From the NCBI RefSeq assembly GCF_020010925.1, contig NZ_JAGJBZ010000003.1:930001-994000 (forward strand): 64,000 bases of DNA. Reading direction: 5' to 3'. Source of the stretch: Streptomyces griseiscabiei. Its GTDB lineage: Bacteria > Actinomycetota > Actinomycetes > Streptomycetales > Streptomycetaceae. The notes below the pieces were generated by a model, which saw only the letters and a program-made list of their open reading frames with translations, was not told the DNA's origin and did not search any database. Below, piece after piece: positions 6,060 through 24,192 of this stretch. The position numbers and the translations under genes are program-made. Position 1 is the first letter of the stretch; the number at the start of each line of letters is the position of its first letter.

Positions 6060-6104
6060 TCTTGGCGGTCTGACCTGGTAGCTCCAGCATCAGCTGAGCT
6101 CCTG

Positions 6105-6847: not shown

Positions 6848-7437
6848 GCACGAGGACGACGCGGACCTTCGAGGACCGGCTGCTGGGCGAACTCCAGCGG
6901 GAGATCGCGCTGCGGGCGGAGGAGCGGGCCGAGCCCGAGCCCGTGCTTCGGCGCCGCGCGATCACGACCCGGCGTGCGCTGGTCGCCCTCGCGGCGTGTG
7001 TCGCGGCGGCGGGGGTGGTGGTGGCGCTGCCGTCGTCGACAGGAGGGGCGCGGGCGTACGCCATGGAGCGGCACAAGGACGGCAGTGTCACCCTCACCTT
7101 CGATGAGATCGCCCTGGGCTGGGACGACAAGACGGAGCTGACCGAGCGGCTGCGTGCGGAGGGCATCTTCGTCAGTGTCGACAAGCCCAGGAGCGGCTAC
7201 GTCTGTGAGCAGCCGCGCGGTGAGCTGCCGCCGCCGCGCACGAGGAGCTACGACGTGAAGAAGGGCGTCTGGAGTGAACCCTTGACGTACACCCTGCACC
7301 CTGGGGACACCCTGGCCTTCGAGGAGCCGGAGAGGGTGAAGGACGACGTCAGCCCTGCCTGGAGCATGTACGTGGTCGAGGGACGGATCGAGCCCTGCAA
7401 AGAAGTGCCCTTCGAAGGGCTTGTGGGGGAGGACTGA
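6844..7437 (+). CDS. Single-pass membrane protein paired with the ECF sigma factor
   Basis: A protein of 197 residues whose ATG overlaps the sigma-factor stop codon (ATGA), so translation is probably coupled. A charged N-terminal region of about 43 residues is followed by one hydrophobic segment (about 44-62) and an extracytoplasmic part of about 135 residues with two cysteines. The layout is that of an anti-sigma factor or sigma-linked membrane protein. I do not see a clear zinc anti-sigma HxxxCxxC motif in the cytoplasmic part, so an anti-sigma role is inferred only from gene order and topology. Confidence 0.65.
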   Translation: MSTRTTRTFEDRLLGELQREIALRAEERAEPEPVLRRRAITTRRALVALAACVAAAGVVVALPSSTGGARAYAMERHKDGSVTLTFDEIALGWDDKTELTERLRAEGIFVSVDKPRSGYVCEQPRGELPPPRTRSYDVKKGVWSEPLTYTLHPGDTLAFEEPERVKDDVSPAWSMYVVEGRIEPCKEVPFEGLVGED

Positions 7438-7474
7438 CCGGGCGGGCCTTCCCGTCTTCGAGGCTGTTCGTCTT

Positions 7475-7486
7475 CGAAACTATTCG
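7475..7486 (+). promoter_or_regulatory. Candidate xylan-regulator operator
   Basis: CGAAACTATTCG is an inverted repeat (CGAA-N4-TTCG) about 85 bases before the GH115 gene. It is one base longer than the CGAAACTTTCG-type palindromes reported near xylanase genes of actinomycetes, which are bound by LacI-type repressors. Assignment is by resemblance only. Confidence 0.4.
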
Positions 7487-7570
7487 ACGCTGACGACCCG
7501 TTGTCCCCTCGTCCCCCTCCCTTCACCATTTGTCATGCCGCTGACCAAATAGGGGATCGAGGGGTGTGGC

Positions 7571-10726: not shown

Positions 10727-10752
10727 AGACCGGATCTGAGAGAGGACCACAG

Positions 10753-11829
10753 ATGGGGAACGTGAACCGCTTTCGCATGCCTGTGCTCGCGCTGGTCGCC
10801 GGGGCGCTGCTGTCCACGGCGGTGGCCGTGGAACCGGCGGCGGCCCGTACTCCGCCGCCCCTGCGGGTGCTGGCCGACCGGGCGGACGTACGCATCGGCA
10901 CGGCCGTGGACATGAGCGCGCTGGCCGAGGACCGGACGTATCGCAGAACCGTGGACCGTGAGTTCGACTCGGTGACCGCCGAGAACGTCATGAAGTGGGA
11001 GTCGGTCGAGCCGCGGCGTGGGGTCTACGACTGGGAGGCGGCCGACGACCTGGTCCGTCACGCCCGCGCCCACGGCCAGGTGGTGCGCGGCCACACCCTG
11101 GTCTGGCACAGCCAGCTGCCGGGGTGGCTGACGGCCGGGGTCGAGGACGGCTCGATCGGCTCGGCGGAGCTGCGCGGAATCCTCCGCAAGCACATCACCA
11201 CCGAGGTGAAGCGGTACAAGGGGAGGATCCAGCAGTGGGACGTGGTGAACGAGGTCTTCGAGGAGGACGGCAGCCTGCGGAACTCGATCTGGCTGCGTGA
11301 GCTGGGCCCGTCGTACATCGCGGACGCCTTCCGCTGGGCGCACGCGGCCGACCCGAAGGCGAAGCTCTTCCTCAACGACTACAACGTGGAGGGCGTCAAC
11401 GCGAAGTCCACGGCGTACTACGAACTGGCGAAGCGGTTGCGTGCGCGGGGCGTGCCGGTGCAGGGCTTCGGCGCTCAGGGACACCTCGCGATCCAGTACG
11501 GCTTCCCGGGGCAGGTCGCGGAGAACCTCGCCCGGTTCGAGGCGCTGGGGATGCGGACGGCGTTCACGGAGGTGGACGTGCGGATGATCCTGCCGGCCGA
11601 CCCCGACAAGCTGGCGACCCAGGCGTCGTACTTCCGGAGGCTGCTCGATGCCTGTCTGGGGGCGCGGAGCTGCACGTCGTTCACGGTGTGGGGGTTCACG
11701 GACCGGTACTCGTGGGTGCCGGGGGTGTTCGTCGGACAGGGCGCGGCCACGCCGCTGGACGAGGAGTACGGGCGGAAGGCGGCGTACGGGGCGTTGCGGG
11801 ACGGGCTGGCGGAGGGGCGGGGGGACTGA
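10753..11829 (+). CDS. Secreted GH10 endo-1,4-beta-xylanase
   Basis: This enzyme cuts internal beta-1,4 linkages of xylan. The ATG at 10753 follows a GAGAGAGGA ribosome binding site and gives 358 residues. Residues 1-30 form a Sec signal peptide ending near AAA-RT. The catalytic domain contains ENVMKWE, GHTLVWHSQLPGW, the acid/base Glu167 in WDVVNEVFEEDG and the nucleophile Glu273 in AFTEVDVRM. WGFTDRYSWVPG near the end is also typical of GH10. There is no carbohydrate-binding module, unlike the larger two-domain Streptomyces xylanases. It lies 26 bases after the GH115 gene. Confidence 0.95.
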   Translation: MGNVNRFRMPVLALVAGALLSTAVAVEPAAARTPPPLRVLADRADVRIGTAVDMSALAEDRTYRRTVDREFDSVTAENVMKWESVEPRRGVYDWEAADDLVRHARAHGQVVRGHTLVWHSQLPGWLTAGVEDGSIGSAELRGILRKHITTEVKRYKGRIQQWDVVNEVFEEDGSLRNSIWLRELGPSYIADAFRWAHAADPKAKLFLNDYNVEGVNAKSTAYYELAKRLRARGVPVQGFGAQGHLAIQYGFPGQVAENLARFEALGMRTAFTEVDVRMILPADPDKLATQASYFRRLLDACLGARSCTSFTVWGFTDRYSWVPGVFVGQGAATPLDEEYGRKAAYGALRDGLAEGRGD

Positions 11830-11855
11830 CGGTAGGACGGGCGGCGGGACGGACG

Positions 11856-12587
11856 TCAGTAGCGGCTTCTGAACAGGGCCCGGTCGCCGATGAACTGGCC
11901 GGTCATGGCCGCGGTGGCGAGGCGGTCGGCGAAGCGGGTGTAGGCCGTGTACTCGTCGGTGGAGAGGGTGATGTGCCGGGCGCCCTCGGCGAAGCGGTCG
12001 GGGGCGAGGGCGGCGGCGAGGGTCTCGACGTCCTCGTCGGGGGCGAGGGTGAGGACCGCGACGGTCCGGTCGACCGTGCCGACGTATTCGCCGGGGCTCG
12101 CCACGCTCTCGATGTCCGCCGAGCCGTCGGGGTGGTGGGTGACGAGGAGCGAGGGGTTGGCCTTCGCTCCGGCGCGCAGGGCGCGTCGGACGCGCTTGAG
12201 GGCGCGCAGGTCGTCCTCGGCCACGGTGACGGGGTGGAGCGGGACGAGCGGGGTGCCGTCCGGGGCGTGCAGTGCGCTGCGGCGGGTGGGGTCCGCGGTG
12301 GCGTCCTTGATCGAACGGCGGCTGCGCAGCGCGGGTGGGAACGCGCGGTGAATGTCGCCCCAGGCGTCGAGCGCCTTCGGCGCGTCCAGGCCGGTCAGGT
12401 TCTCCAGCCCCGGCGGGTAGGCGGGTGCGATGTGCTCGCCCACGCCGTTCTCCCGGGCGGCCCAGGCCGCGTGGTACGGGGCGAGGAGGAGGTCGTTGGT
12501 CATGTAGAAGTCATGCAGCCACTGGGGGTCCTGGGGGAGGAGGCGGACGGTGGTGGTGGCCGGGCGTCTTGTGCGTACGGGGGTCAT
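11856..12587 (-). CDS. Conserved hypothetical protein
   Basis: A protein of 243 residues with no domain I recognise. It starts at ATG 12587 with a GAGAGG ribosome binding site. It has no signal peptide or membrane segment and looks soluble and cytoplasmic. The C-terminal half reads like an alpha/beta domain (TVAVLTLAPDEDVETLAAALAPDRFAEGARHITLSTDEY). A pair of direct repeats lies 53-91 bases upstream of the start and suggests dedicated regulation. It is convergent with the xylanase gene and downstream of the HTH protein gene. Confidence 0.6.
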   Translation of the reverse strand: MTPVRTRRPATTTVRLLPQDPQWLHDFYMTNDLLLAPYHAAWAARENGVGEHIAPAYPPGLENLTGLDAPKALDAWGDIHRAFPPALRSRRSIKDATADPTRRSALHAPDGTPLVPLHPVTVAEDDLRALKRVRRALRAGAKANPSLLVTHHPDGSADIESVASPGEYVGTVDRTVAVLTLAPDEDVETLAAALAPDRFAEGARHITLSTDEYTAYTRFADRLATAAMTGQFIGDRALFRSRY

Positions 12588-12639
12588 CGGAGTGCCTCTC
12601 GTCGGCAGCGCATCGGTGGGCGTCGGTGGTCGTCGACCG

Positions 12640-12678
12640 ATATCGTCATCTCGACGAGATCATATCGTCAGATCGACG
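12640..12678. promoter_or_regulatory. Direct-repeat operator candidate
   Basis: Two 17-base copies of ATATCGTCA-NN-TCGACG (12640-12656 and 12662-12678) differ only at the two central bases and are spaced 22 bases apart, about two helical turns. The first overlaps a 13-base palindrome ATCTCGACGAGAT (12648-12660). The site lies upstream of the leftward hypothetical gene ending at 12587 and looks like a regulator binding site. Confidence 0.55.
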
Positions 12679-12704
12679 CAATGCCTAGCGGCATCTGGCA
12701 GCGC

Positions 12705-13598
12705 CTACCGGTCTGCCGCTCGGAAGCTGGGCTCCGCCGCCTTCTCGCAGTCGCGGCAGCGGCTCCCCCTCGGGCCCCGGAAGCCGCGGTCGCAGCCGTC
12801 GCAGTTGGTCATCTCGTAGTGGACGGGTGGCGGGGACGCCGGGGCCCGGAACGGCGGCGGGGGCGGCAGCCGGTCCGTGAGCCGGTGGGCCAGCAGGGCG
12901 GCCGGGCGGTGCAGGGGCTCGTTCGGGAGATCGCCGGTCAGGGCGTGGCGTACGGCGGTGGCGGCGATGTCGCGCTCCAGCCAGGCGGCCACGCCCGGGG
13001 CGAGGTGCGCGGTGTCGCAGGCCGAGAGCAGCAGGCGGGGGTCCGTGCGGCGCAGGTCGGCGAGGAGCTCGGTGGCGGTCCGCAGAAGGGCGGGGGAGGG
13101 GCAGGCGGGGTGGGGGACGGCGGGAAGGGGCTTGCGGGGCGCCTTTTGCCTGGGGTCCTTCCGGGGCGCGTGCGCCGGGCGTACGGGCTCGCTCTCCGTG
13201 TGGCCCTTGCCCCGGCCGGGCTGGTTGCAGGAGATCGTGCGGGTGATGATCCGGCCGCCGGGGACGCGCGCGCGTTCGCGGCGGAGGTAGCCGTGGGCCT
13301 CCAGCTCCCGCAGGGCGGCGGCGATACGGGTCGTGCCCTCCTGGAAGCGGCCGGCGAGCGTCTTGATGTCGACGCGGGCGCCCTTGGGGAGCGACTGGAT
13401 GTGCGCGGCGAGCCCGATCGCGACGAGGGACAGCTTCGGGTGCTGGGCGAGGTGGTTGCCGATCACCGTGAAGCGGGCGGTGTGGCGGGTGTGGTCGTGG
13501 AGCAGACCACCGCCGCCCGAGTGAGGCCGGTCCGGGTGGTTGTTGGCCGGAGGCCGGGCGTGGGCGCGCGCGGGCGCGCTAGGGTGCTGCGTATCCAT
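12705..13598 (-). CDS. Helix-turn-helix protein with C-terminal zinc ribbon
   Basis: A protein of 297 residues starting at ATG 13598, with AGGAAGAGA about 10 bases upstream. Residues about 45-110 look like a winged helix: a LAQHPKLSLVAIGLAAHIQSLPKG start, a recognition region KTLAGRFQEGTTRIAAALRELEAHGYL and a basic wing RRERARVPGGRIITRT. A low-complexity proline- and basic-rich linker follows, then a helical part, and near the end CDGCDRGFRGPRGSRCRDC, a CxxC/CxxC zinc ribbon. Similar proteins are common in Streptomyces and are annotated as helix-turn-helix proteins of unknown role. The wing and ribbon suggest DNA binding. Confidence 0.7.
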   Translation of the reverse strand: MDTQHPSAPARAHARPPANNHPDRPHSGGGGLLHDHTRHTARFTVIGNHLAQHPKLSLVAIGLAAHIQSLPKGARVDIKTLAGRFQEGTTRIAAALRELEAHGYLRRERARVPGGRIITRTISCNQPGRGKGHTESEPVRPAHAPRKDPRQKAPRKPLPAVPHPACPSPALLRTATELLADLRRTDPRLLLSACDTAHLAPGVAAWLERDIAATAVRHALTGDLPNEPLHRPAALLAHRLTDRLPPPPPFRAPASPPPVHYEMTNCDGCDRGFRGPRGSRCRDCEKAAEPSFRAADR

Positions 13599-13801
13599 CG
13601 GGAAGCTGTTCTCTTCCTGGGTGGTCAGGCCCTCGCACTGGGATTGCCGTCCCGGCGGGGGCCGTCGTATGTCTGCGGTTGTTGTGCTCGCCGAGCGTAG
13701 GGCAGGTGACCGCTCCCGAATCCAGCCAAGCGGGCGATGTTCACCCGCGAGGGTGAGGCGACCGCTGAGCGGGAGGAGGGGTGGGGTTTGGTGGGGTTCT
13801 T

Positions 13802-14170
13802 TCACCCATGAGTTCTTTGGTGGTGACAGCCCGTGGCACCGGAGCGCGAATTTCCGGGTGCCGGTGGGAGGCCGATCTCGGCCCAGACGGTCTTGCGCGG
13901 CGGGCGCCCGGGAGTGGTCCCCCAGCGGTCGGCGAGGGCCGCGACGACGAGCAGCCCCCGGCCTGACTCGGACTCCGCGCCGGGGGCGGGGTGTTGGGCG
14001 CGGGGGAGTCGTTCGGCGCGGGTGTCCGTGACCTCGATACGGAGGGTGCGGCCGACCACGTAGAACGTGAGGTCGAAGTCGCGGTCTGTCAGCCGCTCCG
14101 ACGGTGCGTTCAACGGTCGGGCGACCCATGATCCCCAACAACTGCGCGTCCTTGAGCTGCGGTACGGCAC
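13802..14170 (-). pseudogene. 5'-truncated HATPase (RsbW-like anti-sigma/ATP-binding) remnant
   Basis: A frame of 122 codons whose middle part reads as the C-terminal half of the short Streptomyces RsbW-like histidine-kinase-type ATPases: DFDLTFYVVGRTLRIEVTDT, then SGRGLLVVAALADRWG and KTVWAEIGLP. The first half of that family, including the ELVTNAVxHG N-box, is missing or degenerate; only LNAPSERLTDRDF resembles what should follow it. The upstream DNA belongs to the end of the GHKL-nuclease gene, whose stop is 40 bases away. I read this as a gene truncated by a rearrangement. A functional short protein is possible but would probably not bind ATP. Confidence 0.55.
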
Positions 14171-14209
14171 CGTCCGGGCTCAGGCGTGCTCGCCCCGGGA
14201 GTCGCCCCC

Positions 14210-16234
14210 TCAGCTCACGCTGACGTCGTCCGCCTGGGCGGACTTCGTGGCGTACGCGGCCGGGGGCTGACCGTCCCGGCGAGGTGGGGGAACCGTCGCG
14301 TCGGCGACCAGCTCCGCCACCGCGTCGCCGTGGTTGCGGACCAGGTAGTCCATGGCGTGTTCGGTGGAGGACTGGTACTCCAGTTGTTGGCCGTAGAAGC
14401 GGAGCCGGGTCTCGCAGTCCTGGACGAGTTCGCCCCAGGTGCGTACCCAGATCCGGTACGTCGGCTGGTTGAGGGCGCAGCCGGGGGGATTGTGGGGCTG
14501 GTGGGACAGCTCGCGGAGCGTGTCCGTCATGTCGTTGCCGACCAGCCAGAAGTCCCACGTCGTACGGGTGTCACGGAACCGGTCGTCCTTCCGGACGGCC
14601 TGTGCGTAGCTGCTGAGCTGCTCGAACTCGCCCAGTCCCAGGGTGAGGCGAGGGCGTTTGAGTTCGACCACCAGATGGTGCCGCTCGTCATGGCGGTGAC
14701 GGGAGGCTCGCGACAGCATGAGGTCGACGATGGCCTGGCGTCCGTCCGGCCGGAGCACCGCAGGGCCCGTCGGTTCCTCGCGGCCCAGCAGGTGGCAGTG
14801 CTGTCGCAGCACCTCGGTGAGACTTCGATCGCTCACATGCAGGCCGTACTCCTCGCCGAAGACCCAGCACTCGTTCTCCAGGATTCGGTGGAGTTCGGTG
14901 CGCTCCTTGACGCGGTTCTTGGCCTCGGGGTCGAAGACGAGGTGTTCCAGAGCCGCCAGGAAGTCCAGCCGACTGGTCGCGGCCGTCGAGGCCTTGACCA
15001 GAGCTGAAAGGGGAGTGCGGTCGAGGAGCCGGTTGAGTTGTTCCCGTTCCTGCTTGGAGAGGCTGAACAGTTCCTCGGCGATCCGCAGCACGTCCGAGGG
15101 CTCGTGCGCGAGCACGGACCGGAGCAGGGCGAACGTGGTCCTGCGCGTGCCGGTGGATTTGGGCAGGTGGCGGAAGACGGTCGTGGCCACCGCGTCGAAC
15201 GTCTCGCGTTCGGTGCGTTCGCGTGCGCCGGCGGGCTGCCCCGCGTACGGGTAGATGCCTTCCCGGCGCCATTCGGCGACCTGTTCCCGCCGCCGTTCGT
15301 CCACGCGGGCGCGGAAGTGGGCCTTGAGCTGGTCACGGGCCGTCGTGAGCACTTCGGCCAGCGGCCCGTGCGACGCCCAGTCGGTGAAGGCGAGATCCTC
15401 GGAGTCGACCTCGTCGAAGCCGGACCAGCTGAGATGCGCCGTGAACTCGAAGCCCGGGGCCTGGATGCCAGGCTTGAGCTGCGCTCGCGACATGCCTTCG
15501 CCGTCGCACAGGAAGAGCGCGCGGGTGACCGGCCTGCGCCACTCGACGACCTTCAGCTTCGCGGGGTCGCCGTCCCAGCCGACGGGGGAGGGAAGCACGT
15601 AGTCGCACATGTGCGCCTGCTCGGCGGCCGGGTCGAGGTCCTGGCCGTCGTACTCGATGCGTACGTCCGGGTACTTCTCCAGGTACGTGGCGAACGCCGT
15701 GGTGAGCGATGACCTGGCGCGTTCGTCGGCCAGGACACTCAGCTGCTCGTCCCCGCCGAACGCCTCGAACAGCGTGCCGATGGGGTCGTCGGCGGGTTCC
15801 GGGTCGCCGATGTCGAACTCGTCCATCGAGCGCCGGTCCGCCTCTATCACCAGCTGCTGCCGGCCCCCTGGCGCGTCGCTGACGCTGGTCCAGCGCACCT
15901 GGGTGCCGAGTGCGAAGGCGCGCACCCGGCCGCGTCCGTTCTTGCCGTGCAGAGCGCGCTTCTTGACCGGGCTGCCCTGCGCACGCTTCTTCCAGGAGGC
16001 GCCGATCGGCCGGAAGTACTCCTCGCAGTGCTCGGCCGACATCCCGCTGCCGTCGTCCTGGACGCGGACCCGGTCCACGCCGCCCAGGTCGTTGCGCTCC
16101 AGCGTGACGACGACGTGCCCGGCGTCGGCGTCGACGGCGTTCCAGATCAGCTCCTCGACCGCGCCGATCGGATCGCGCAGCCGCGCCAGCTCGGCGACGT
16201 GCTCCCGGCTGGTCTCCAGCCGCACCTTCACCAT
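14210..16234 (-). CDS. GHKL ATPase fused to a Shedu-like (DUF4263) nuclease domain
   Basis: A protein of 674 residues from ATG 16234; an in-frame GTG at 16414 would overlap the divergent gene and adds no similarity. Residues 1-180 form a GHKL (Hsp90/MutL/MORC-type) ATPase: Glu28-Leu-Ile-Trp-Asn32-Ala-Val-Asp35, DDGSG at 60-64 and the lid GKNGRG at 97-102. The middle part is helical. The C-terminal part has LENECWVFGEEYGL and a PD-(D/E)XK pattern with Asp504 in AIVDLML and Glu524-Leu-Lys526 in HLVVELKRP, then FEQLSSYAQAV. This is characteristic of Shedu/DUF4263 nucleases, which act in phage defence. Expression is divergent from the secreted-protein gene at 16380. A conflict-related nuclease gated by ATP is inferred, not demonstrated. 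Confidence 0.75.
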   Translation of the reverse strand: MVKVRLETSREHVAELARLRDPIGAVEELIWNAVDADAGHVVVTLERNDLGGVDRVRVQDDGSGMSAEHCEEYFRPIGASWKKRAQGSPVKKRALHGKNGRGRVRAFALGTQVRWTSVSDAPGGRQQLVIEADRRSMDEFDIGDPEPADDPIGTLFEAFGGDEQLSVLADERARSSLTTAFATYLEKYPDVRIEYDGQDLDPAAEQAHMCDYVLPSPVGWDGDPAKLKVVEWRRPVTRALFLCDGEGMSRAQLKPGIQAPGFEFTAHLSWSGFDEVDSEDLAFTDWASHGPLAEVLTTARDQLKAHFRARVDERRREQVAEWRREGIYPYAGQPAGARERTERETFDAVATTVFRHLPKSTGTRRTTFALLRSVLAHEPSDVLRIAEELFSLSKQEREQLNRLLDRTPLSALVKASTAATSRLDFLAALEHLVFDPEAKNRVKERTELHRILENECWVFGEEYGLHVSDRSLTEVLRQHCHLLGREEPTGPAVLRPDGRQAIVDLMLSRASRHRHDERHHLVVELKRPRLTLGLGEFEQLSSYAQAVRKDDRFRDTRTTWDFWLVGNDMTDTLRELSHQPHNPPGCALNQPTYRIWVRTWGELVQDCETRLRFYGQQLEYQSSTEHAMDYLVRNHGDAVAELVADATVPPPRRDGQPPAAYATKSAQADDVSVS

Positions 16235-16379
16235 GATGTGGGTTTCTCCGGTTCTGTCACACGCCCCTGAACGAGAGCAAAGTCTGCCCCCTCCGGTGGG
16301 TTTGACGTGGGGAATCGCCGCGAGATCACTCTTGGTACTCTGCCGCCTCCCGTATGGACATCCATTCGAAGAGGTGTAA

Positions 16380-17207
16380 ATGAAGTCAGGCAGACGAACC
16401 GTCGCGGCGGCCACGCTCGTGGGGGCGCTCGGGCTCTCGGTGCTGAACGCGCCGGCGGCTCAGGCGGCGGACACCGGTATCACCGTGTCGGACATCGTCA
16501 TCAACAAGGGCAAGCCGATCGTGGTCGGCACGACGAAGGAAGTGGCGCCGCCGATCTCCTTCAACATCGCCCTGCCGTCCGGGCAGAGCACCGCGAAGCC
16601 CTCCGGTTACACCGCGCACCCCTTCATCTACCGGGGTAGCAGGAGCAAGGCCGTCGACACCGGCGACGGCTACATCGGGCCGGGTATCTACACCTGTTTC
16701 GAGATCGACGCCAAGCATGCCCGCTGCGAGGGCGAGTTCCACATCGACCCGCACTGGAGCCGGAAGCAGGTCGACACCAACGCGGCGGCGACCACCTGGA
16801 AGACCGCTGTCGCGCTGCGCCTGTGGAAGTCCGGCGGCGGTCTCAAGACCGAGGAGTACGAGACCCGGTCCAAGACCGTGCAGCTCAAGCGCGCGGCCAG
16901 GGCCACCGTCGGGGCCACGCCGGAGACGGTCACCAAGGGCAAGAAGATCACCGTCACGGGCAAGCTGACCCGGGCGAACTGGAGCACCAAGAAGTACGGC
17001 GGCTACAGCGGCCGTACGGTCAGCCTCCAGTACCGCGCCTCGGACGCCACCTCGTTCAAGACGGTCAAGAAGGTCACCACCAGCTCCACCGGTGCCCTGA
17101 AGACCACGGTGAACGCCTCCGCCGACGGCTTCTACCGCTGGGTGTACTACGGCAACACCACGACCGACACCGCCACCAGCCCGGCGGCCTACGTCGACGT
17201 GCGCTGA
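16380..17207 (+). CDS. Secreted protein of unknown function
   Basis: A protein of 275 residues with a clear Sec signal peptide (about 1-29, ending AAQA-AD). The mature part has about 130 residues with two cysteines (CFEIDAKHARCEG), followed by a segment (about 178-275) that resembles an Ig-like or bacterial surface beta-sandwich repeat: VGATPETVTKGKKITVTGKL and, at the end, DGFYRWVYYGNT. Such secreted proteins are common in Streptomyces and their role is unknown. It is divergent from the GHKL-nuclease gene and convergent with the RNA-repair operon. Confidence 0.7.
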   Translation: MKSGRRTVAAATLVGALGLSVLNAPAAQAADTGITVSDIVINKGKPIVVGTTKEVAPPISFNIALPSGQSTAKPSGYTAHPFIYRGSRSKAVDTGDGYIGPGIYTCFEIDAKHARCEGEFHIDPHWSRKQVDTNAAATTWKTAVALRLWKSGGGLKTEEYETRSKTVQLKRAARATVGATPETVTKGKKITVTGKLTRANWSTKKYGGYSGRTVSLQYRASDATSFKTVKKVTTSSTGALKTTVNASADGFYRWVYYGNTTTDTATSPAAYVDVR

Positions 17208-17224
17208 CCCCCTCAAGAGACCCC

Positions 17225-20005
17225 TCAGGACAGGGTCGGCACCTCGCCGCCCTCCGCCCGCGTCAGTGTGACCCCCGCCAAGCCGCGTAGCCGGCGGTCC
17301 GCCACGGCGGCCAACTCGTCGGCGGTCGGCGGGGAGTGGCCCAGGCCGATCGCGTAACGGGCGGGGGCCGTGGTGAAGGGGCGGGGCCAGGCGTGGCAGT
17401 CGGGGGCGAGGTCGGCGAGGTCCGTGATCAGGGCCCGCATCCTGCCCCGTACCCGGCCCTCGTCCGTGCTCCCGCCCCGGCCCCCCTCCACCGTCACGAC
17501 CGCCCACGCGGCGTGGCGGCGGTGGAGCGGGGGAGGGGTGAGGAGGGCGGACAGGGGGCTGCCCTCCTCCAGCGACTCCCAGGCCCGGAACAGCTCTTGG
17601 GTGATCAGATCGCGCATGCCCGCCGTGACCTGGTCCGTGCAGGGACGGACCGGGGCCGAGGGGGTCGCGATCATGAGGGGGAGCGCGCACCGCTCGACCG
17701 CACCCACCGGCTCGCGCCAGTCCCACGCCGCCCAGGTCGCGAAGAAGTGCCGGAGGAGATCGGCGGGTGACCGCTCGCCGGCCTCGCGCGCGGTGCGGGC
17801 CGCCAGCACCGACCACGCCAGGCCCGGCAGCCCGCCGAACGGTGCCGAGTCCAGGCCCCGCGCCCTCGCCCATGCCTTGACCTGCCTGGCCAGCCCGGCG
17901 AAGGCCGGACCGTGGGCGCCCGCCGAGGCGAGTACCGCCTCCGCGTCGCTCACCGCGCTGAGCGCGATCGCCGCCGCCTCGCCCAGCTCGGTCCGTCGCG
18001 CCACCGCCTCCGCCGGGTCCATGGAACCCGTGGCCACGACCGCCAGATCCACCGCCAGCCCGTCGAGCCGCAGCCGCAGACCGGGTACGCGTGCCCCGAC
18101 CACCTCCCGCACCTCGGCGGTCGCCCGGATCGACTCCTTCAACTTCCCTTCCACAGTCGCCAGTTCGGCCCTGCCCGGCAGCGCCGCCACCAGGTCCAGA
18201 TCCGCGCCGGGCAGCGCGCAGCCCATGCGCCGGGAGCCGACCACATGCACGACACCGGAGGGGAACGCGTCGGTGAGGAGGCGGGTGACCCGGTCGGCCA
18301 CGGCGGAGCCGGCGGCCTCGTCCCGGTACGGGGTCGGCGTCGGCTCCTCCCGCCAGCGCACCTCTCCCGTCCCCAGGCTCACCGTCGCCCGCACCCGCAT
18401 CGGCTCGTCCCCGCGCCGCGACAGCAGCGCCAGCTCGCCGACCCCGGCCGACAGGGGGGTGAGCCGGGTCGCACACGCTGCGGCCAGGGCGTTCGGGTCG
18501 GTGGTGCGGCCCAGGCTCAGATGCGGGGTGAAGCCCTCCTGGCGCCCCCGGCAGCGCGGGAAGTGGCGTACGAGGGTGCTGTGCAGCTCGGCCCAGGGCT
18601 CCGCGCCCGCCGCCGCCGGGTCCAGCCACACCGTCGCGTCGTCCCGGTGCCCGAACCAGTGCACGCCCTCCAGCCGGGCGTCGAACGGCGAGGTCGTGGC
18701 CGTCGCGAGGACCGAGGCCGCCTCCTCGAAGGCGTGTTCCGGTACGAAGCCGAAGAGGACGTTCACATGCGGGGGCCAGCGGTGGATCTGCGGGTCGTTC
18801 CTCCGGCGGATCTCCTGGAGCGGCGGCCACAGCTCCTCGGGAGGCAGCCACGCCAGCGCCGTGCGGGCCGTCGGCCGGAGGTCGAGACGGGCGAGGCCGC
18901 TGTGCGGGGCCTCGGGCGCCACCTCCGCCCGGACCCCGTAGTGGTCCGAGACGAACAGCCCCTCCGCCGTGGGCGTGTCCCCGTACAGCTCGGCCGAGCG
19001 CACCCCCAGGCCCGCGCCGCGCAGCAGGACCCGGTCCAGCCGGGACGCCCGTCCGGACAGCGACGAGACCGCGGCCAGCGGGTTGGCGGTCGGGTCGAAG
19101 GTCGGTGTCGTGTCCGCCCGGCCGTGCGTCTCGCTCCACGCGTCCCGCATGCCCAGGGCCGACTGCGGGGTGTCGCCGCCGTCGTTGAAGTCGCCGAGGA
19201 GCAGCAGATCGGCGTCCAGGCCCGCCAACCCCTCGGCGAGACGGGCCAGTTCGGCGGTACGGCGACCGGCGCCGTCGGCCGAGTGGTCGCTGCTCAGATG
19301 CGTCGCCGCCACGACCAGGGGGTGCGCGCCCGTCTCCACCACCACGGCCGTCACCGCCTTGTGCGGGCCCAGCGCGTGGAACGCGGCCTCGCGCACCGGC
19401 AGCCGGCTCAGCAACAGCAGCCCGCACTCCGCCACGTCCCGCCCGGACGGGGCCGTGCCCAGGGTCCAGCCCTCCCGCAGCCAGGGCTCGCGCAGCAGCA
19501 GGGCCAACAGCTCCGCCTCGACCTCCTGCAACGCGATCACGTCCGCGTCCGCGTCCCGCAGGGCCCGCAGCAGCAGCGGTCTGCGCCGGGCGGTGTCGAT
19601 GAGATCGGCGTCGTAGCGGTCCCAGAGGGTGTTCCAGGTCAGCACCCGGACGGAGGAGGCGGCAGCCTCTCGCGGTGAGCCGGTCGCGGGCGCCCAGCGC
19701 TCGCCGTCCCACGCGTGCGGTGTGCGCGCCGTGAAGAACGGCGCCCGGAGCAGCCGCGCCTCCCGTACGCGCCCCGCGTCCGTCGCGTCCATCCGGTCCA
19801 CACCCGTGGCCCGGTCCCAGACCACCTCGCCGTCCGCCTCGAAGAACAGCACCCGGTGCCACGGGATCTCCCCGCCGGGCACGAACGCGGGCAGCGGGAC
19901 CCGCTTGGGCGCGGCGTTGCGCTGCAGCACGCCGAGCACGAAACGGGCCGGGTCGAAGCGCGCGTCCCAGCGCACCCGGTGATAGATCTCCTCGCTCGTC
20001 CGCAC
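17225..20005 (-). CDS. MJ1316-EEP-2H-poly(A) polymerase-like RNA repair polyprotein
   Basis: A protein of 926 residues with four recognisable parts. Residues 1-70 form an MJ1316 (DUF504) domain, [18 protein letters not shown] with [19 protein letters not shown], predicted to recognise RNA cyclic-phosphate ends. Residues 118-362 form an endonuclease/exonuclease/phosphatase domain with Asn125, Glu161, GDFND at 271-275 and SDH at 353-355. Residues about 370-550 form a 2H phosphoesterase domain with HVN at 413-415 and HLS at 495-497. From about 570 a nucleotidyltransferase domain has Gly590-Ser591 and Asp602/Asp604, followed by a poly(A)-polymerase-like helical part ([11 protein letters not shown]). 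The GTG start at 20005 lies 19 bases after the RNA ligase-kinase gene, so the two form an operon. It should process RNA ends; substrates are unknown. Confidence 0.85.
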
Positions 20006-20024
20006 GGTTCCTCAGACCTCTTTC

Positions 20025-21698
20025 TCAGATCTCGTCCTCTATGGTCCCGCTCGCCCCGACGTACCAGGTGCGGTGCGCGTCGCCCGGATAGGGCGGGGCG
20101 AAGCGGCGCAGCTGGCCGGTGAGCACCCCGGGCGGCACCGGATGCCGGCGCCGGGTGTCGCGTCGTACGAGTTCGTCCTCGTCGACCAGCACCACGGCGT
20201 GCGTGATCAGCGCGTCGCGGCGGTGCGCGACCGTGTGCACCAGCGAGCGCTGCTGATGGGTGAGCGAGGTGGCGTCCCACACCGTCGTCCCGCCGCCGGC
20301 CAGTGCCTCGTCCAGCCGGTCGAGCCCGGCGCGCAGGACGTCCGCGTTGGCGCGCTGATCGGCGCGCGCGCCGCGCGCCTCGCGCAGATCGTCCAGCGAT
20401 ATGTACGTGTCGACGCCCCCGAGAGCTCTCGCGAACGTGCTCTTGCCGCTGCCCGCCGGCCCGACCAGCTGGACCAGCCCCGGGAAGGCCCCCGACCGCC
20501 ATCGCCAGGTCGCGGCGACGGCTCCCTCGACATCGCCGACGCGCCCCCGCGCGTACGCCTCCCGCGCCTCGGCCCGGCAGCGCAGAGCCGCCTCGGGCGG
20601 CAGCCCGGCGAACGCGTCCCGCAGGGCGGCCTCGTCCAGGGGCGCCACCTCTTCCGCGTGCAGCGCCGACCACTCCACCTGCTCCCGCGCCTCGTCCGTC
20701 ACCGCCGTGGCCCGCGCGACCGCGTGCAGCGGCCCGAGGCCGGCGGCCAGGGACAGCCGGGCCAGGCCGGTGCGGCGGTCCTCGTCGGGATACGGCCGGT
20801 GCAGCGCGGGGTGCAGCCCCACCAGGTCCGCGACCCGGCGCGCGAGCGGCATGCCCACGACCCCGGCGAGCCGCGCCGCGACCCGGGCCCGCCGGCCGCC
20901 CCCTCCCTGGCGGTTCAGCACGGCGGCCAGGACGCCGGCGAGCCGGTCGTCCCCGGTCGCCTCCGCCGGTTCGAAGCGGGCGGCGGCCTCCTGGTCCCCC
21001 TCCCCGGGCAGCCCCACCGCCTCCGCCAGCGCCTCCGCGTCGGCGGGCGCGCCGGAGCGCACGGCCCACAGCGGCGCCCGCGCGCCCAGTCCGTTCTCCA
21101 CGACCGCCGCGTGCATCCAGTGCGTGTCCGTCCGTACGTGCCCGGCCCGCACCCACTTCGCGACCCGCGCGCCGAACTCCTCCGCGCCGAAGCCGTCCAC
21201 GACCCGGACGACGTACCCCTCCTGCCGTCCGAGGTCCAGCCGCAGCGCGCGCAGCGCCCGCTCGTCGAACACGCCCCGCCACAGCACGCGCGGCACGGGC
21301 ACCCCGAGGCCGTGCAGGAAGGCCACCGTCCGGTCCCAGTCCAGGCAGCGCCCGTCCCCGTCCCACACCGAGAAGCCGTAGAACCAGCTGTCCAGGTCGT
21401 CGTAGGCGAGCGAATGCCGGGCGAACATGTTCTCGCCGCACACCCGCCAGCCCGCCGGGACGGCGTGGCCGATCCGGGCCTGGAGCGCCTTGACCCAGGT
21501 ACGGGAGGGGTGGTGAGCGGAGTCGAGTGAGCGGGCGTGCACGCCGTCGCGGTACAGCGTCGTGTTCTCGCCGTCGAGCTTCTCCGTCACCACGACCTCG
21601 TGGCCGCGCAGCCCGGACAGGTCGGCGACCCGCAGATCGTCGGCGGTGGCGCCGGGGGACCAGGGCAGATGCCGGGTCCGTGGATAGTGCGTGCGCAT
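20025..21698 (-). CDS. RNA ligase fused to polynucleotide kinase
   Basis: A protein of 557 residues from ATG 21698. The N-terminal half is an RNA ligase of the Rnl2-like nucleotidyltransferase type: motif I EKLDGEN with adenylylated Lys40, ENMFARHS around Glu89, FYGF at 106-109, EGYVVRV around Glu160 and motif V VAKWVR with Lys181. The C-terminal part is a P-loop kinase with GPAGSGKST at 413-421 and a Walker-B-like segment, resembling 5'-OH polynucleotide kinases. Together these activities would phosphorylate a 5' end and reseal broken RNA. It is the first gene of a two-gene operon with the MJ1316 polyprotein. The divergent DUF1275 gene starts 104 bases upstream. Confidence 0.88.
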   Translation of the reverse strand: MRTHYPRTRHLPWSPGATADDLRVADLSGLRGHEVVVTEKLDGENTTLYRDGVHARSLDSAHHPSRTWVKALQARIGHAVPAGWRVCGENMFARHSLAYDDLDSWFYGFSVWDGDGRCLDWDRTVAFLHGLGVPVPRVLWRGVFDERALRALRLDLGRQEGYVVRVVDGFGAEEFGARVAKWVRAGHVRTDTHWMHAAVVENGLGARAPLWAVRSGAPADAEALAEAVGLPGEGDQEAAARFEPAEATGDDRLAGVLAAVLNRQGGGGRRARVAARLAGVVGMPLARRVADLVGLHPALHRPYPDEDRRTGLARLSLAAGLGPLHAVARATAVTDEAREQVEWSALHAEEVAPLDEAALRDAFAGLPPEAALRCRAEAREAYARGRVGDVEGAVAATWRWRSGAFPGLVQLVGPAGSGKSTFARALGGVDTYISLDDLREARGARADQRANADVLRAGLDRLDEALAGGGTTVWDATSLTHQQRSLVHTVAHRRDALITHAVVLVDEDELVRRDTRRRHPVPPGVLTGQLRRFAPPYPGDAHRTWYVGASGTIEDEI

Positions 21699-21790
21699 GA
21701 TGGATGTTCCCCGGTTCCCCCGTGCCGGCCGACTTACCTGATCAGCGTAGGAGCGCGGCTCGTGGGCGGGCGAGCGGATTATGCGGGCCC

Positions 21791-21803
21791 TAGGGTCCGG
21801 GTA
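21791..21803 (+). promoter_or_regulatory. -10 box for a leaderless DUF1275 transcript
   Basis: TAGGGT at 21791-21796 ends 6 bases before the ATG at 21803 and there is no ribosome binding site. This spacing is typical of leaderless Streptomyces mRNAs starting at the A of ATG. No good -35 box is visible. Confidence 0.5.
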
Positions 21804-22531
21804 TGAAGCCCAGTGCGGGCGTCGGGCTCACATCGGCCATGGTGGCGCTCACGGTGACGACCGGCATGATCGAGGCCGTCAGCTTTCTCGTGCTCGGACC
21901 GGTGTTCACGGCCGTGCAGACCGGGAACCTGCTCTTCCTCTCCTTCGCGCTCACCGGTGCCGCCGGGCTGTCCCCGGCCGCCTCGGGCGTCTCGTTCGCC
22001 GGGTTCGTGGTCGGCGCGGTGCTCGGTTCCCGGTTCGAGTCCGGTGTGGACGCGCACGGCCGACGCTGGTTCGGGCCCGCGCTGGTCGTCGAGGCCGTGC
22101 TGCTGGGACTGGGTGGACTGGTCGCCTGGCGCACCGGCCTCGATGTGACGGGCGGTCCGGCGCAGGACCCCCACTACACCGTCGTCGCCCTGGTTGCCGT
22201 GGCCATGGGTGTCCGCAACGTCACCACCCTGCGGGCGCGGGTCGCGGACGTCCCCACCACGGTCTCCACCCGCGCCCTGACCGCGCTCCTCAGCGGTCTG
22301 CCGCCGCACCCCGACAGCCACGTCGGGGCGGGCGCCAGGAACGAGGGCCGCCGTCTCGCCTCGGTCGCCGCGATGTTCGGCGGCGGCCTGCTGGGCGCGT
22401 GGCTGCTGCTGCGAGTAGAAGTGCATCCGGCGCTGGTCCTGCTGATCCCCGCCGCGCTGGTCCTCGCCCTGGGCGCGGGCTACTGGGCGATGCGGCGGGG
22501 GCGTGCGCCGGAGCCGTCGGAGTCCGGCTGA
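21803..22531 (+). CDS. DUF1275 (YoaK-family) membrane protein
   Basis: A protein of 242 residues with about six hydrophobic segments. It has the DUF1275 hallmarks: MIEAVSFLVLGPVFTAVQTGNLLFL near the start (TGN motif), then AMGVRNVTTLRARVADVPTTVSTRALTALL. The family comprises integral membrane proteins of unknown function; a transporter role is often suggested. Translation probably starts directly at ATG 21803 on a leaderless message. It is divergent from the RNA-repair operon. Confidence 0.85.
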   Translation: MKPSAGVGLTSAMVALTVTTGMIEAVSFLVLGPVFTAVQTGNLLFLSFALTGAAGLSPAASGVSFAGFVVGAVLGSRFESGVDAHGRRWFGPALVVEAVLLGLGGLVAWRTGLDVTGGPAQDPHYTVVALVAVAMGVRNVTTLRARVADVPTTVSTRALTALLSGLPPHPDSHVGAGARNEGRRLASVAAMFGGGLLGAWLLLRVEVHPALVLLIPAALVLALGAGYWAMRRGRAPEPSESG

Positions 22532-22571
22532 ATCGGGGCGCCCCCGCGAAGTCGCTGTGGATCATGGACGC

Positions 22572-22811
22572 ATGAGTCTTCCAGTGAGCCGCCTCATCGG
22601 CGCCGTTCTCGTACTCGCCGGAATCAGCGGCGCCCTCTGGGCGGCCCTCGGCGTACCCCAGGACTGGACCGGGGGGATGCGGTGGATGCGGACCGTGCTG
22701 GCGCTGACGTCCTTGGGGGCGATCGGCCTGGCGGCCCGCCTCATATATCCCGATCGCGCGGCGGACGCCCCGGACGACGCCCCGGACCGTGTCGACGGCA
22801 CCCGGGTTTGA
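22572..22811 (+). CDS. Small two-segment membrane protein
   Basis: A 79-residue protein starting at ATG 22572. It has two hydrophobic segments (about 7-27 and 39-57) separated by a short loop with WTGGMRW, and a charged, acidic tail. I do not recognise a family. Its stop codon (22809-22811) overlaps the -35 box of the rpsJ promoter, so it directly precedes the S10 operon. It may be a real small gene, since GC periodicity and topology are good, but no function can be assigned. Confidence 0.55.
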   Translation: MSLPVSRLIGAVLVLAGISGALWAALGVPQDWTGGMRWMRTVLALTSLGAIGLAARLIYPDRAADAPDDAPDRVDGTRV

Positions 22812-22835
22812 CGTCCGTCACTCTCGGGGTAATCT
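22808..22835 (+). promoter_or_regulatory. rpsJ (S10 operon) promoter
   Basis: TTGACG (22808-22813), a 16-base spacer and TAATCT (22830-22835) form a good HrdB-type promoter. The -35 box overlaps the stop codon of the preceding small gene. The resulting leader is close to 380 bases long. A weaker second candidate, TTGGCG (22847-22852) with CAGACT (22872-22877), lies just downstream. Confidence 0.7.
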
Positions 22836-23221
22836 CTCCGGCTCGATTGGCGGAGCCGGTGGGCCGTATGGCAGACTAGCGGGGTTGCTCGGTCGAGTGT
22901 TGATGCTGCGCGCCTCCCGCCGGGAGGACCGGAAGCGAGTCCCACAGTACTCGTCGCCCCAACTGCCTTACGGCAGCGCTGGAGCGGACGTACGGGAATC
23001 TTTCGGGAAGTGTCAGTGCGGCGCCGGCCAGGCACCCGGTGGGCTTCTGCCCCCGGCCCGCGGCTGAAGGTGGGGCCGTGTTTCCCGGACAGGGGATGCT
23101 CGAACAAGGGGCATCTGTGTCAGCGGAAGCGCGACACGCCCGACCGCGTGGGTCGGAGGGGCGGGTGAACGGAACACCGGGTTCCAGAGCGTTAAACGAG
23201 ACAAAGGACTACTGAGTAGCC
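22812..23221 (+). other. Long rpsJ leader region
   Basis: This 410-base gap contains no convincing gene. A hairpin CCGGCTC (22838-22844)/GAGCCGG (22853-22859) lies close to the expected transcription start, and several more GC-rich inverted repeats follow. The element shared with the rpsL leader is at 23132-23156. A purine-rich ribosome binding site near 23203-23208 precedes rpsJ. Confidence 0.7.
23132..23156 (+). promoter_or_regulatory. Leader hairpin shared with the rpsL leader
   Basis: Second copy of the 25-base element, differing from 1594-1618 at one position. The core CCGACC-GCGTG-GGTCGG forms a hairpin 65 bases before rpsJ. GTTCCAG and GTTAA follow downstream, as in the rpsL leader. 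Confidence 0.6.
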
Positions 23222-23530
23222 ATGGCGGGACAGAAGATCCGCATCCGGCTCAAGGCCTACGACCACGAGGTCATCGACTCCTCGGCGAAGAAGATCGTCG
23301 AGACGGTGACCCGCACTGGTGCGTCGGTCGCGGGCCCGGTGCCGCTGCCCACTGAGAAGAACGTGTACTGCGTCATCAAGTCGCCGCACAAGTACAAGGA
23401 CTCGCGCGAGCACTTCGAGATGCGCACGCACAAGCGCCTGATCGACATCCTCGACCCGACGCCCAAGACCGTTGACTCTCTGATGCGACTCGACCTTCCG
23501 GCCGGTGTCGACATCGAGATCAAGCTCTAG
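23222..23530 (+). CDS. rpsJ: 30S ribosomal protein S10
   Basis: S10 belongs to the 30S head and, as NusE, also takes part in transcription antitermination. The protein has 102 residues, normal for the family, beginning [19 protein letters not shown] and ending DIEIKL. The flexible-loop segment [31 protein letters not shown] is intact. It is the first gene of the S10 operon, behind a long structured leader. rplC follows 17 bases later. Confidence 0.98.
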
Positions 23531-23547
23531 GGATCGGTGATCTGAGA

Positions 23548-24192
23548 ATGGCTAAGCAGATCAAGGGAATCCTGGGCGAGAAGCTCGGCATGACGCAGGT
23601 GTGGGACGAGAACAACCGTGTTGTTCCGGTCACCGTCGTCAAGGCCAGCCCCAACGTCGTGACCCAGGTCCGTACGAACGATGTCGACGGCTACGAGTCG
23701 GTCCAGATCGCCTTCGGCGAGATCGACCCGCGCAAGGTGAACAAGCCCCTCAAGGGTCACTTCGCCAAGGCCGACGTCACCCCCCGCCGTCACCTCGTCG
23801 AGATCCGCACCGCGGACGCCTCCGAGTACACGCTGGGCCAGGAGATCTCCGCCGAGGTCTTCGAGGCCGGCGTCAAGGTGGACGTGACCGGCAAGAGCAA
23901 GGGCAAGGGCTTCGCCGGTGTCATGAAGCGTCACAACTTCAAGGGCCTCGGCGCCGGTCACGGCACCCAGCGCAAGCACCGCTCTCCCGGCTCCATCGGT
24001 GGCTGCGCCACCCCGGGCCGTGTGTTCAAGGGCCTCCGCATGGCGGGTCGCATGGGCAACGAGCGGGTCACCACCCAGAACCTGACCGTCCACGCCGTTG
24101 ACGCGGAGAAGGGTCTGCTGCTCATCAAGGGCGCGGTTCCCGGTCCGAACGGCGGCCTCGTCCTGGTCCGCACCGCGGCCAAGGGGGCCTGA
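23548..24192 (+). CDS. rplC: 50S ribosomal protein L3
   Basis: L3 is an early-assembling 23S rRNA binder whose extension reaches near the peptidyl-transferase centre. The protein has 214 residues beginning [21 protein letters not shown]. The loop segment [20 protein letters not shown] with [19 protein letters not shown] is the conserved central extension. It lies 17 bases after rpsJ and 7 bases before rplD. Confidence 0.98.

What the first reader, a model, noticed from the sequence alone, without database searches (positions are those of the whole stretch)
17225..21698. Two-gene RNA repair operon (ligase-kinase plus MJ1316-EEP-2H-nucleotidyltransferase)
Seen: an RNA ligase (Lys40 motif I to Lys181 motif V) fused to a P-loop kinase, and 19 bases later a polyprotein with MJ1316, EEP, 2H and poly(A)-polymerase-like parts. 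Known: MJ1316 domains and such gene combinations have been predicted by comparative genomics to repair RNA cut by toxins or nucleases. Inferred: the operon can remove cyclic phosphates, trim, extend, phosphorylate and seal RNA ends, perhaps tRNAs. I know of no experimental work on this combination in Streptomyces.
Basis: partly seen in the sequence, partly recalled or inferred. Interest (0 to 1): 0.8.

Follow-up and report, generated by a model that had tools for sequence, protein, structure and literature searches.

The report
Two-gene RNA break repair cassette
Two adjacent Streptomyces genes encode what looks like a toolkit for cleaning and rejoining broken RNA ends, and its ligase-kinase carries a burnt-out end-cleaning domain whose job the neighbouring gene seems to have taken over.

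Summary
Observation confirmed: a ligase-kinase (20025-21698, minus) and, 19 bases on, an MJ1316-EEP-2H-nucleotidyltransferase protein (17225-20005, minus). Catalytic residues are conserved in 70 ligase-kinase and 82 polyprotein orthologues, and the pair travels together at various sites in Actinomycetes. The gene fuses a jumbo-phage/plasmid-type ligase (DRB0100 relative) to HD-Pnk (DRB0098 relative). Of five HD metal-site residues, 117 of 118 HD-Pnks keep all; the 71 fusions keep at most one, while kinase residues stay intact. So 3'-end cleaning probably passed to the second gene, where 2H was lost at least twice but EEP was kept in every complete copy examined, making EEP the likeliest core 3'-end enzyme. 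Caveat: DRB0100 adenylylates on the same Lys40, yet published assays found no RNA or DNA ligation. The operon holds the three Trl1 activities, and Tpt1 is in 32 of 32 Streptomyces with the long polyprotein versus 92 of 118 without. It is thus a testable candidate source of bacterial 2'-phosphate junctions, though two complete genomes have the operon without Tpt1. Nothing has been shown for the Streptomyces proteins themselves.

The parts
20025..21698 (-). Gene 1, ligase - dead HD - kinase fusion, 557 aa
21087..21698 (-). RNA ligase (covalent nucleotidyltransferase) domain, residues 1-204, nucleophile Lys40, motif V Lys181; DRB0100 / jumbo-phage small-ligase type
   Evidence: PF09414 3e-34; phrog_34045 (unknown function) 7e-73 and phrog_24030 (RNA ligase) 7e-55; 58% identity to the D. 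radiodurans MP1 ligase; motifs invariant 70/70
20499..21086 (-). Degenerate HD phosphoesterase domain, residues ~205-400; metal ligands lost
20028..20489 (-). P-loop 5'-polynucleotide kinase domain, residues 404-557
20006..20024 (.). 19-base spacer; operon-type spacing
   Evidence: of 69 loci with both genes complete, 61 are spaced -14 to +20 bases (starts chosen by script)
17225..20005 (-). Gene 2, MJ1316-EEP-2H-nucleotidyltransferase polyprotein, 926 aa
19811..20005 (-). MJ1316 domain (residues 1-65), predicted RNA cyclic-end recognition
   Evidence: PF04457 5.9e-19; W13, D14, W49, H50, R51, W63, R65 in 82/82, D64 in 81/82
18941..19642 (-). EEP (endonuclease/exonuclease/phosphatase) domain, residues 122-355
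   Evidence: PF03372 5.9e-20; N125, E161, D272, N274, D354, H355 in 82/82
18404..18844 (-). 2H phosphoesterase domain, residues 388-534; motifs HxN (H413) and HxS/T (H495)
   Evidence: PF13563 5.8e-32; both His in 71 of 71 proteins that keep the domain, 11 of 82 lack it
17702..18310 (-). Pol-beta/PAP-like nucleotidyltransferase, residues 566-768
   Evidence: phmmer to poly(A) polymerase gamma 4lt6, E=1.4e-14; G590 and S591 82/82, D602 82/82, D604 79/82, D653 81/82
17228..17701 (-). C-terminal extension of the nucleotidyltransferase, residues 769-926, PAP-like in its first ~75 residues
   Evidence: phmmer match to 4lt6 reaches residue 842; aligned across relatives in A6

Best explanation
A two-protein machine that heals and seals endonuclease-broken RNA with a 2',3'-cyclic-phosphate end and a 5'-OH end. 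(1) MJ1316 binds the cyclic end (inferred from the family's predicted role). (2) The EEP domain, helped where present by the 2H domain, removes the cyclic/linear phosphate or trims the end, giving a ligatable 3' end; this replaces the HD phosphoesterase that died in the ligase-kinase. (3) The PAP-like nucleotidyltransferase restores lost 3' nucleotides. (4) The kinase phosphorylates the 5'-OH. (5) The ligase domain adenylylates itself on Lys40, activates the 5'-phosphate and seals. Shown here by computation: domain make-up, catalytic-residue conservation, gene linkage, loss of the HD metal site. Shown elsewhere for the Deinococcus relatives: Lys40 adenylylation and 5'-kinase activity. Inferred: substrate (most likely tRNA or other RNA cut by toxins or immune RNases), order of steps, transfer of 3'-end healing to gene 2, and that sealing occurs.
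For: Domains and motifs. Kinase closest to CthPnkp, then T4 Pnk, in sequence and among the best in fold. Linkage: ligase-kinase beside the polyprotein in 75 of 79 genome loci (one of the 4 misses is a contig end), and polyprotein directly downstream, EEP included, in 17 of 17 ligase-kinase genomes among 394 class genomes. Of the other gene families near the 99 loci, the commonest is in 31 and is a ribosomal protein of one insertion site. HD loss: H51, D82 and D173 are 0/71 in fusions, against 118/118, 118/118 and 117/118 in HD-Pnks; H140 1/71 against 118/118; kinase K277, D293, R342, R371 71/71, R375 70/71. In three Deinococcus plasmids the ligase and HD-Pnk are separate genes, the two whose HD-Pnk was scanned hit the Pfam HD model, and no polyprotein is annotated nearby; the plasmid search with P0002 hit no Deinococcus. 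EEP kept in all 82 complete polyproteins while 2H changed on two branches. Experiments on DRB0100/DRB0098: PMC1997131 (abstract, passages, one section).
Against: DRB0100 did not ligate any RNA or DNA substrate tested. Three Streptomyces genomes (ISL-96, -98, -100) carry the polyprotein with no ligase-kinase found in the genome, and the cyanobacterial relative on the Calothrix plasmid has no annotated ligase beside it, so the polyprotein can probably work without this ligase. H81A/D82E in DRB0098 did not reduce the measured (contaminated) 3'-phosphatase activity, so the HD activity is unproven in Deinococcus. One HD residue is often still there: H81 in 57/71 and H139 in 47/71 fusions. The EEP profile is closest to TDP2, not to CCR4 relatives. 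Six sampled genomes whose operon lacks 2H have other PF13563 genes elsewhere. The window neighbours scanned include no toxin that would point to a substrate.
Confidence: 0.62

Rival explanations
1. A bacterial Trl1-Tpt1 pathway: the 2H domain opens 2',3'>p to a 2'-phosphate/3'-OH end, the kinase adds the 5'-phosphate, the ligase specifically seals 2'-phosphate ends, and the genome's Tpt1/KptA removes the junction 2'-phosphate using NAD+.
For: Same three activities as fungal Trl1 (ligase, kinase, 2H cyclic phosphodiesterase). Trl1-LIG-KIN (9r3w) is the sixth Foldseek match of the ligase-kinase model, but at TM 0.23/0.21 and rmsd 20.4, so it shows only shared domain types. Tpt1 is in 32 of 32 Streptomyces with the long polyprotein vs 92 of 118 without (Fisher p=0.0013, not corrected for relatedness) and in 15 of 17 ligase-kinase genomes vs 61 of 377 others in the class sample. 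DRB0100 failed on plain 3'-OH ends, as a 2'-phosphate-dependent ligase would; its operon has a macro-type protein for which the paper mentions ADP-ribose binding as unpublished. 10 of the 40 listed plasmids with this ligase (50 in all) also carry Tpt1, against 58 of 72,556 plasmids overall. PMC6333775 (passages) speaks of a longstanding conundrum about Tpt1 in bacteria that lack a yeast-like ligase.
Against: Two complete genomes (G382, G495, one genus) have the whole operon incl. 2H and no Tpt1 even at E<=10. The six sampled Streptomyces whose operon lacks 2H also have Tpt1. Tpt1 is common without the operon. 0 of 18 Deinococcus plasmids with the ligase carry Tpt1, and no phage record appears in both listings (25 of 30 and 40 of 93 listed). 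Confounded by relatedness and by large plasmids. An HD-Pnk ancestor would probably have left plain OH ends (inference).
Confidence: 0.2
2. The polyprotein is mainly an RNA 3'-end processing or tagging enzyme (clean, then tail), and the ligase-kinase is an accessory; the system serves RNA turnover rather than rejoining.
For: Polyprotein without ligase-kinase in 3 Streptomyces genomes; the same four-domain protein recurs in cyanobacteria (162 hits at E<=1e-3 with the Calothrix query, 120 listed, named ones cyanobacterial) and has no annotated ligase neighbour on the one plasmid seen; DRB0100 did not ligate.
Against: 17 of 17 ligase-kinase genomes have the polyprotein directly downstream; the ligase motif residues checked are invariant in 70 of 70, so sealing chemistry is under selection.
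Confidence: 0.1
3. A DNA strand-break end-repair operon, as once proposed for the radiation-induced DRB0098-0100 operon.
For: The DRB operon is described as strongly upregulated by irradiation and DRB0098 phosphorylates DNA 5' ends (PMC1997131); EEP profile closest to TDP2.
Against: No DNA ligation by DRB0100 alone or with its operon partners; MJ1316, 2H and PAP-like parts are RNA-type families; the ligase domain hits RNA ligase families.
Confidence: 0.06

Closest known systems
Deinococcus radiodurans DRB0098-DRB0099-DRB0100 (HD-Pnk, macro-type protein, ligase)
   Same: Related ligase (58% identity over 204 aa, same Lys40) and related HD-kinase (33% identity); adjacent genes
   Different: Separate genes, HD motif present, PARG/macro-type gene (PF10021) between them, no MJ1316-EEP-2H-NT protein annotated nearby; here fused, HD dead, polyprotein added
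Fungal tRNA ligase Trl1 with Tpt1
   Same: Ligase, 5'-kinase and 2H cyclic phosphodiesterase combined; Tpt1 present in the same genome
   Different: In Trl1 the three are one protein; here two, with extra EEP, MJ1316 and nucleotidyltransferase; 2'-phosphate dependence of this ligase unknown
Bacterial Pnkp1-Rnl-Hen1 RNA repair complex
   Same: CthPnkp-type kinase plus ATP-dependent ligase, multi-activity repair (abstract of PMC4411300)
   Different: No Hen1-type methyltransferase and no metallophosphatase domain in either protein
MJ1316-EEP-2H-PAP 'poly(A) polymerase' of cyanobacteria
   Same: Same four domains in the same order; Calothrix protein 30.6% identical over 87%
   Different: No annotated ligase beside it on the Calothrix plasmid; other neighbourhoods not examined
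Jumbo-phage small RNA ligases (XacN1, Caulobacter CcrSC)
   Same: About 50% identical ligase domain, ending at the same point
   Different: Stand-alone in XacN1, fused to HNH in CcrSC; no fusion to a kinase seen

Membership tests
ATP-dependent RNA ligase (PF09414, covalent nucleotidyltransferase) | Motif I K-D-G, motifs Ia, III, IV, V | tested here: met
   K40, D42, G43, R56, E89, E160, K181 in 70/70; PF09414 119 bits, cut-off 27
ATP-dependent RNA ligase (PF09414, covalent nucleotidyltransferase) | Seals RNA ends | not testable with these tools
   Nearest tested relative found, DRB0100, adenylylates but did not ligate (PMC1997131 passages)
HD-Pnk | C-terminal P-loop kinase with its conserved K, D, R residues | tested here: met
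   K277, D293, R342, R371 71/71, R375 70/71
HD-Pnk | N-terminal HD domain with intact metal ligands | tested here: not met
   In fusions H51 0/71, H81 57/71, D82 0/71, H139 47/71, H140 1/71, D173 0/71; 0 of 71 keep more than one of H51/H81/D82/H140/D173, 117 of 118 HD-Pnks keep all five. Descent is supported, but it is not filed as an active HD-Pnk
2H phosphoesterase (PF13563) | Two H-x-T/S motifs | tested here: inconclusive
   Both His 71/71; second motif HxS/T 71/71; first is HxN in 68, HxT in 3; PF13563 111 bits, cut-off 27
EEP, CCR4/ANGEL2-like cyclic phosphatase | EEP catalytic residues | tested here: met
   82/82 for N125, E161, D272, N274, D354, H355
EEP, CCR4/ANGEL2-like cyclic phosphatase | Closer to CCR4/ANGEL than to other EEPs | tested here: inconclusive
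   Profile: TDP2 4e-13, then sphingomyelinase-type chains 1e-7, CNOT6L 2e-4, nocturnin 0.05; the N-terminal 71 aa of the Calothrix EEP rank CNOT6/CNOT6L first, but only at E~0.09
MJ1316 (PF04457) | Domain match over cut-off | tested here: met
   69 bits vs 26.3
MJ1316 (PF04457) | Binds RNA cyclic-phosphate ends | not testable with these tools
   Stated in the literature (PMC6514570 passage)
Trl1-Tpt1 pathway | Ligase + kinase + 2H in one system and Tpt1 in the genome | tested here: met
   (G000:C4:48104-48598)
Trl1-Tpt1 pathway | Ligase needs a 2'-phosphate end | not testable with these tools
Pnkp-Hen1 repair | Hen1 methyltransferase in the operon | tested here: not met
   No methyltransferase domain in either protein; no third gene family recurs in most loci
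RtcB/RtcA repair operon | RtcB in the operon | tested here: not met
   RtcB is elsewhere in G000 (C3:720341-721447) and in 146/150 Streptomyces

The most novel reading that the evidence does not exclude
The DRB0100/jumbo-phage-type ligases, fused here to a kinase, are the missing bacterial 'yeast-like' RNA ligases: they seal only 3'-OH/2'-phosphate ends made by a 2H (or similar) enzyme, and so create the internal RNA 2'-phosphates that bacterial Tpt1 exists to remove. This would explain both DRB0100's failure on ordinary ends and the Tpt1 riddle.
Probability: 0.18. Interest if true: 0.88.

Novelty: new variant of a known kind. Interest (0 to 1): 0.6.

Why it matters
If right, it shows how an RNA repair system swapped its 3'-end enzyme: the HD domain was kept as a fold but lost its metal site when ligase and kinase fused, and a neighbouring multi-domain protein took over. 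It also gives a compact bacterial system holding the full set of Trl1 activities in a genome that has Tpt1. The long-open question of what bacterial Tpt1 is for then becomes directly testable. It also offers a reason to retest the DRB0100 ligase with 2'-phosphate substrates.

Tried and rejected
Ordinary RtcB or Pnkp-Hen1 operon: rejected, see the membership test. Defence island: PADLOC gave no match at E<=0.01 for the polyprotein and only weak P-loop matches for the ligase-kinase. tRNA beside the operon: none in the window; Rfam at E<=0.1 over 11000-23600 found only scr4677. Phage origin of the polyprotein: no match in 50,697 phage records at E<=1e-5. Solved relatives of the ligase by sequence: only chance hits (fatty-acid-binding proteins); of MJ1316: none at E<=1. 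The structure search of the whole ligase-kinase model tests the kinase well and the other parts poorly, so the HD identity rests on sequence profiles. The first structure job, single-sequence, was useless (pLDDT 41.7). Neighbourhoods of cyanobacterial relatives could not be fetched beyond one plasmid. The Tpt1 association was not corrected for phylogeny. The GTDB scan used patterns from the EEP, 2H and nucleotidyltransferase parts, so polyproteins without EEP could be under-sampled there; the ligase-first survey is free of that bias and shows EEP in 17 of 17. The MJ1316-2H proteins that lack EEP were looked at in four places (L153, L154, L163, L164) without a ligase-kinase being seen in the gene lists.


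Full report
WHAT IS THERE. The window lies in a Streptomyces genome (G000, contig 3, 930001-994000; the genus is read from named relatives such as a 97% identical protein of S. brasiliscabiei), between the tuf and rpsJ genes of the ribosomal-protein region (gene names from my reading of the translations). Two minus-strand genes, 20025-21698 and 17225-20005, are separated by 19 bases. Pfam finds RNA_ligase and AAA_33 in the first, and MJ1316, EEP, 2H and PAP-type parts in the second, all above cut-off except the palm of the nucleotidyltransferase, which is just under. The nucleotidyltransferase is nearest to eukaryotic poly(A) polymerases among solved structures. The kinase is nearest to Clostridium thermocellum Pnkp, then T4 Pnk. 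The 2H domain is nearest to 2d4g (BSU11850; YjcG as I recall) at 2e-5. The EEP domain is nearest to TDP2, with CCR4-type CNOT6L far behind. A search with only the N-terminal 71 residues of the Calothrix EEP ranks CNOT6/CNOT6L first, but at E of about 0.09, so the EEP subfamily is open.

CONSERVATION. In 70 complete ligase-kinase orthologues every ligase motif residue checked and the kinase P-loop and catalytic residues checked are invariant. Two lid positions in that script were one residue off; the true lid arginines are 71/71 and 70/71. In 82 complete polyproteins the EEP residues N, E, D, N, D, H are 82/82, the nucleotidyltransferase aspartates 82, 79 and 81 of 82, and the 2H histidines 71 of the 71 that keep the domain. 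The first 2H motif is HxN in 68 and HxT in 3.

LINKAGE AND SPREAD. Of 79 loci found with the polyprotein in GTDB contigs, 75 have ligase-kinase sequence beside it. Of the four without, one is cut by a contig end and three are Streptomyces ISL-96, -98 and -100, in whose genomes only weak kinase-type matches were found. Starting from the ligase-kinase, 17 of 394 Actinomycetes-class genomes have it (an eighteenth hit is a kinase domain alone; one of the 17, G519, keeps only fragments of it), and 17 of 17 have the polyprotein, EEP included, directly downstream. Of 69 loci with both genes complete, 61 have them within -14 to +20 bases (starts chosen by script). About 30 loci sit beside the S10 ribosomal operon, others elsewhere; the next commonest neighbour family is in 31 of 99 loci and is ribosomal protein L3 of that site. 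In 150 Streptomyces genomes, 32 have the long protein with MJ1316 and EEP. Of these, 20 gave loci, and 19 of the 20 show the ligase-kinase beside it, the other being cut by a contig end. The other 24 matching genomes hit mainly through the 2H part, some with MJ1316. An MJ1316-2H two-domain protein without the rest was confirmed on a Streptomyces plasmid. PF04457 itself is in 2 of 296 genomes sampled across the phylum. A full MJ1316-EEP-2H-PAP protein is also found in cyanobacteria.

THE HIDDEN THIRD DOMAIN. The ligase domain ends near residue 204. It is about 50% identical to ~200-residue ligases of jumbo phages and 58% to a ligase of the Deinococcus radiodurans MP1 plasmid. There the next genes are a PARG/macro-type protein (PF10021) and a 413-residue protein with an HD domain (PF01966, E=3.9e-13) and a kinase. 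I identify these with DRB0100, DRB0099 and DRB0098 of PMC1997131 by product, order, Lys40, H81/D82 and R371 in its passages. Residues from about 190 of the Streptomyces protein to its end align with DRB0098 (33% identity). Against 118 HD-Pnks, H51 is 118/118 there and 0/71 in the fusions, D82 118/118 and 0/71, H140 118/118 and 1/71, D173 117/118 and 0/71. H81 survives in 57/71 and H139 in 47/71. Of the five residues H51, H81, D82, H140, D173, 117 of 118 HD-Pnks keep all and no fusion keeps more than one. The kinase residues stay. All 71 middle segments match an HMM of the HD part (E 7e-19 to 0.0027; window 0.0021), with reversed controls at E 1 or worse, and profile-profile comparison gives 99.2% probability. 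AlphaFold models this part as helical with pLDDT mostly near 90. So the ligase-kinase is a fusion of ligase and HD-Pnk whose phosphoesterase site is gone but whose fold is kept.

WHAT REPLACED IT. In Deinococcus, where the HD motif is present, no polyprotein is annotated near the three loci read, and the polyprotein search hit no Deinococcus plasmid. In Actinomycetes, where the HD site is gone, the polyprotein is downstream. This suggests that 3'-end healing moved to the second protein (inference). Within it, 13 of 79 loci have no 2H match; 8 of these 13 were scanned and 0 of 8 has PF13563. On the ligase-kinase tree the label changes twice (L090, and a well-supported clade of 12); I read this as loss because most relatives, and Calothrix, have 2H. 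EEP and MJ1316 are present in all 82 complete polyproteins and in the 17 ligase-first genomes. EEP is thus the best candidate for the core 3'-end enzyme. [quoted passage not shown] A trans-acting 2H cannot be excluded: six sampled genomes with 2H-less operons have 2-4 other PF13563 matches each.

DOES IT SEAL? The only experiments on close relatives that I found cut both ways. DRB0100 forms the AMP adduct on Lys40; DRB0098 phosphorylates 5'-OH ends and its activity falls with R371K. Yet no RNA or DNA ligation by DRB0100 was seen, nor DNA ligation with the operon partners, and the 3'-phosphatase result was inconclusive (PMC1997131, abstract, passages and section 14). Either the substrate or a partner was missing, or the ligase needs an unusual end. 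In yeast, the residual 2'-phosphate left after Trl1 ligation is removed by Tpt1 (passages of PMC6592678). Bacterial Tpt1 has no assigned source of such junctions (passages of PMC6333775). The Streptomyces operon holds the three Trl1 activities, and Tpt1 is in 32 of 32 genomes with the long polyprotein against 92 of 118 others (Fisher p=0.0013). In the class sample it is 15 of 17 against 61 of 377. Against this: G382 and G495 have the full operon and no Tpt1 even at E<=10; the association ignores relatedness; 0 of 18 Deinococcus plasmids and no listed phage share ligase and Tpt1. Among the 40 listed ligase-bearing plasmids, 10 carry Tpt1, against 58 of 72,556 overall, but all ten are very large replicons. 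I therefore keep the Trl1-Tpt1 reading as a rival at 0.2, not as the main claim.

VERDICT. The system is a new variant of known RNA heal-and-seal systems. I found no paper describing the dead HD domain or its apparent replacement in the held library (searches; none asked for exactly that).

Noticed in passing
window 13599-13846 (-): Streptomyces sRNA scr4677 (Rfam RF02673, 201.7 bits) lies about 3.4 kb from the operon.
   Followed up: no
window 6060-23221: The stretch between tuf and rpsJ is a cargo region: ECF-type sigma factor, GH115 glycosidase, HATPase_c_3 protein (14210-16414), DUF1275 membrane protein divergent from the operon.
   Followed up: partly
L148 (D. radiodurans MP1): A second RNA ligase, annotated 'RNA ligase (ATP)' DR_RS15930 (DraRnl as I recall), sits a few kb from the DRB0098-0100 operon.
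   Followed up: no
L046, L054, L076: Three Streptomyces (ISL-96, -100, -98) keep the polyprotein but no ligase-kinase was found in the genome; MFS transporter genes lie upstream in the two looked at.
   Followed up: partly
L154:6001-6900: A separate MJ1316-2H two-domain protein, without an annotated gene at this place, recurs in Streptomyces genomes and plasmids.
   Followed up: partly
L151 and L158 (Vibrio 882-kb plasmid): A large plasmid carries the small ligase, an HD-Pnk relative about 9 kb away and Tpt1 on the same replicon.
   Followed up: partly
L147:4545-5624: The Caulobacter CcrSC homologue of this ligase is fused to an N-terminal HNH-type region.
   Followed up: no
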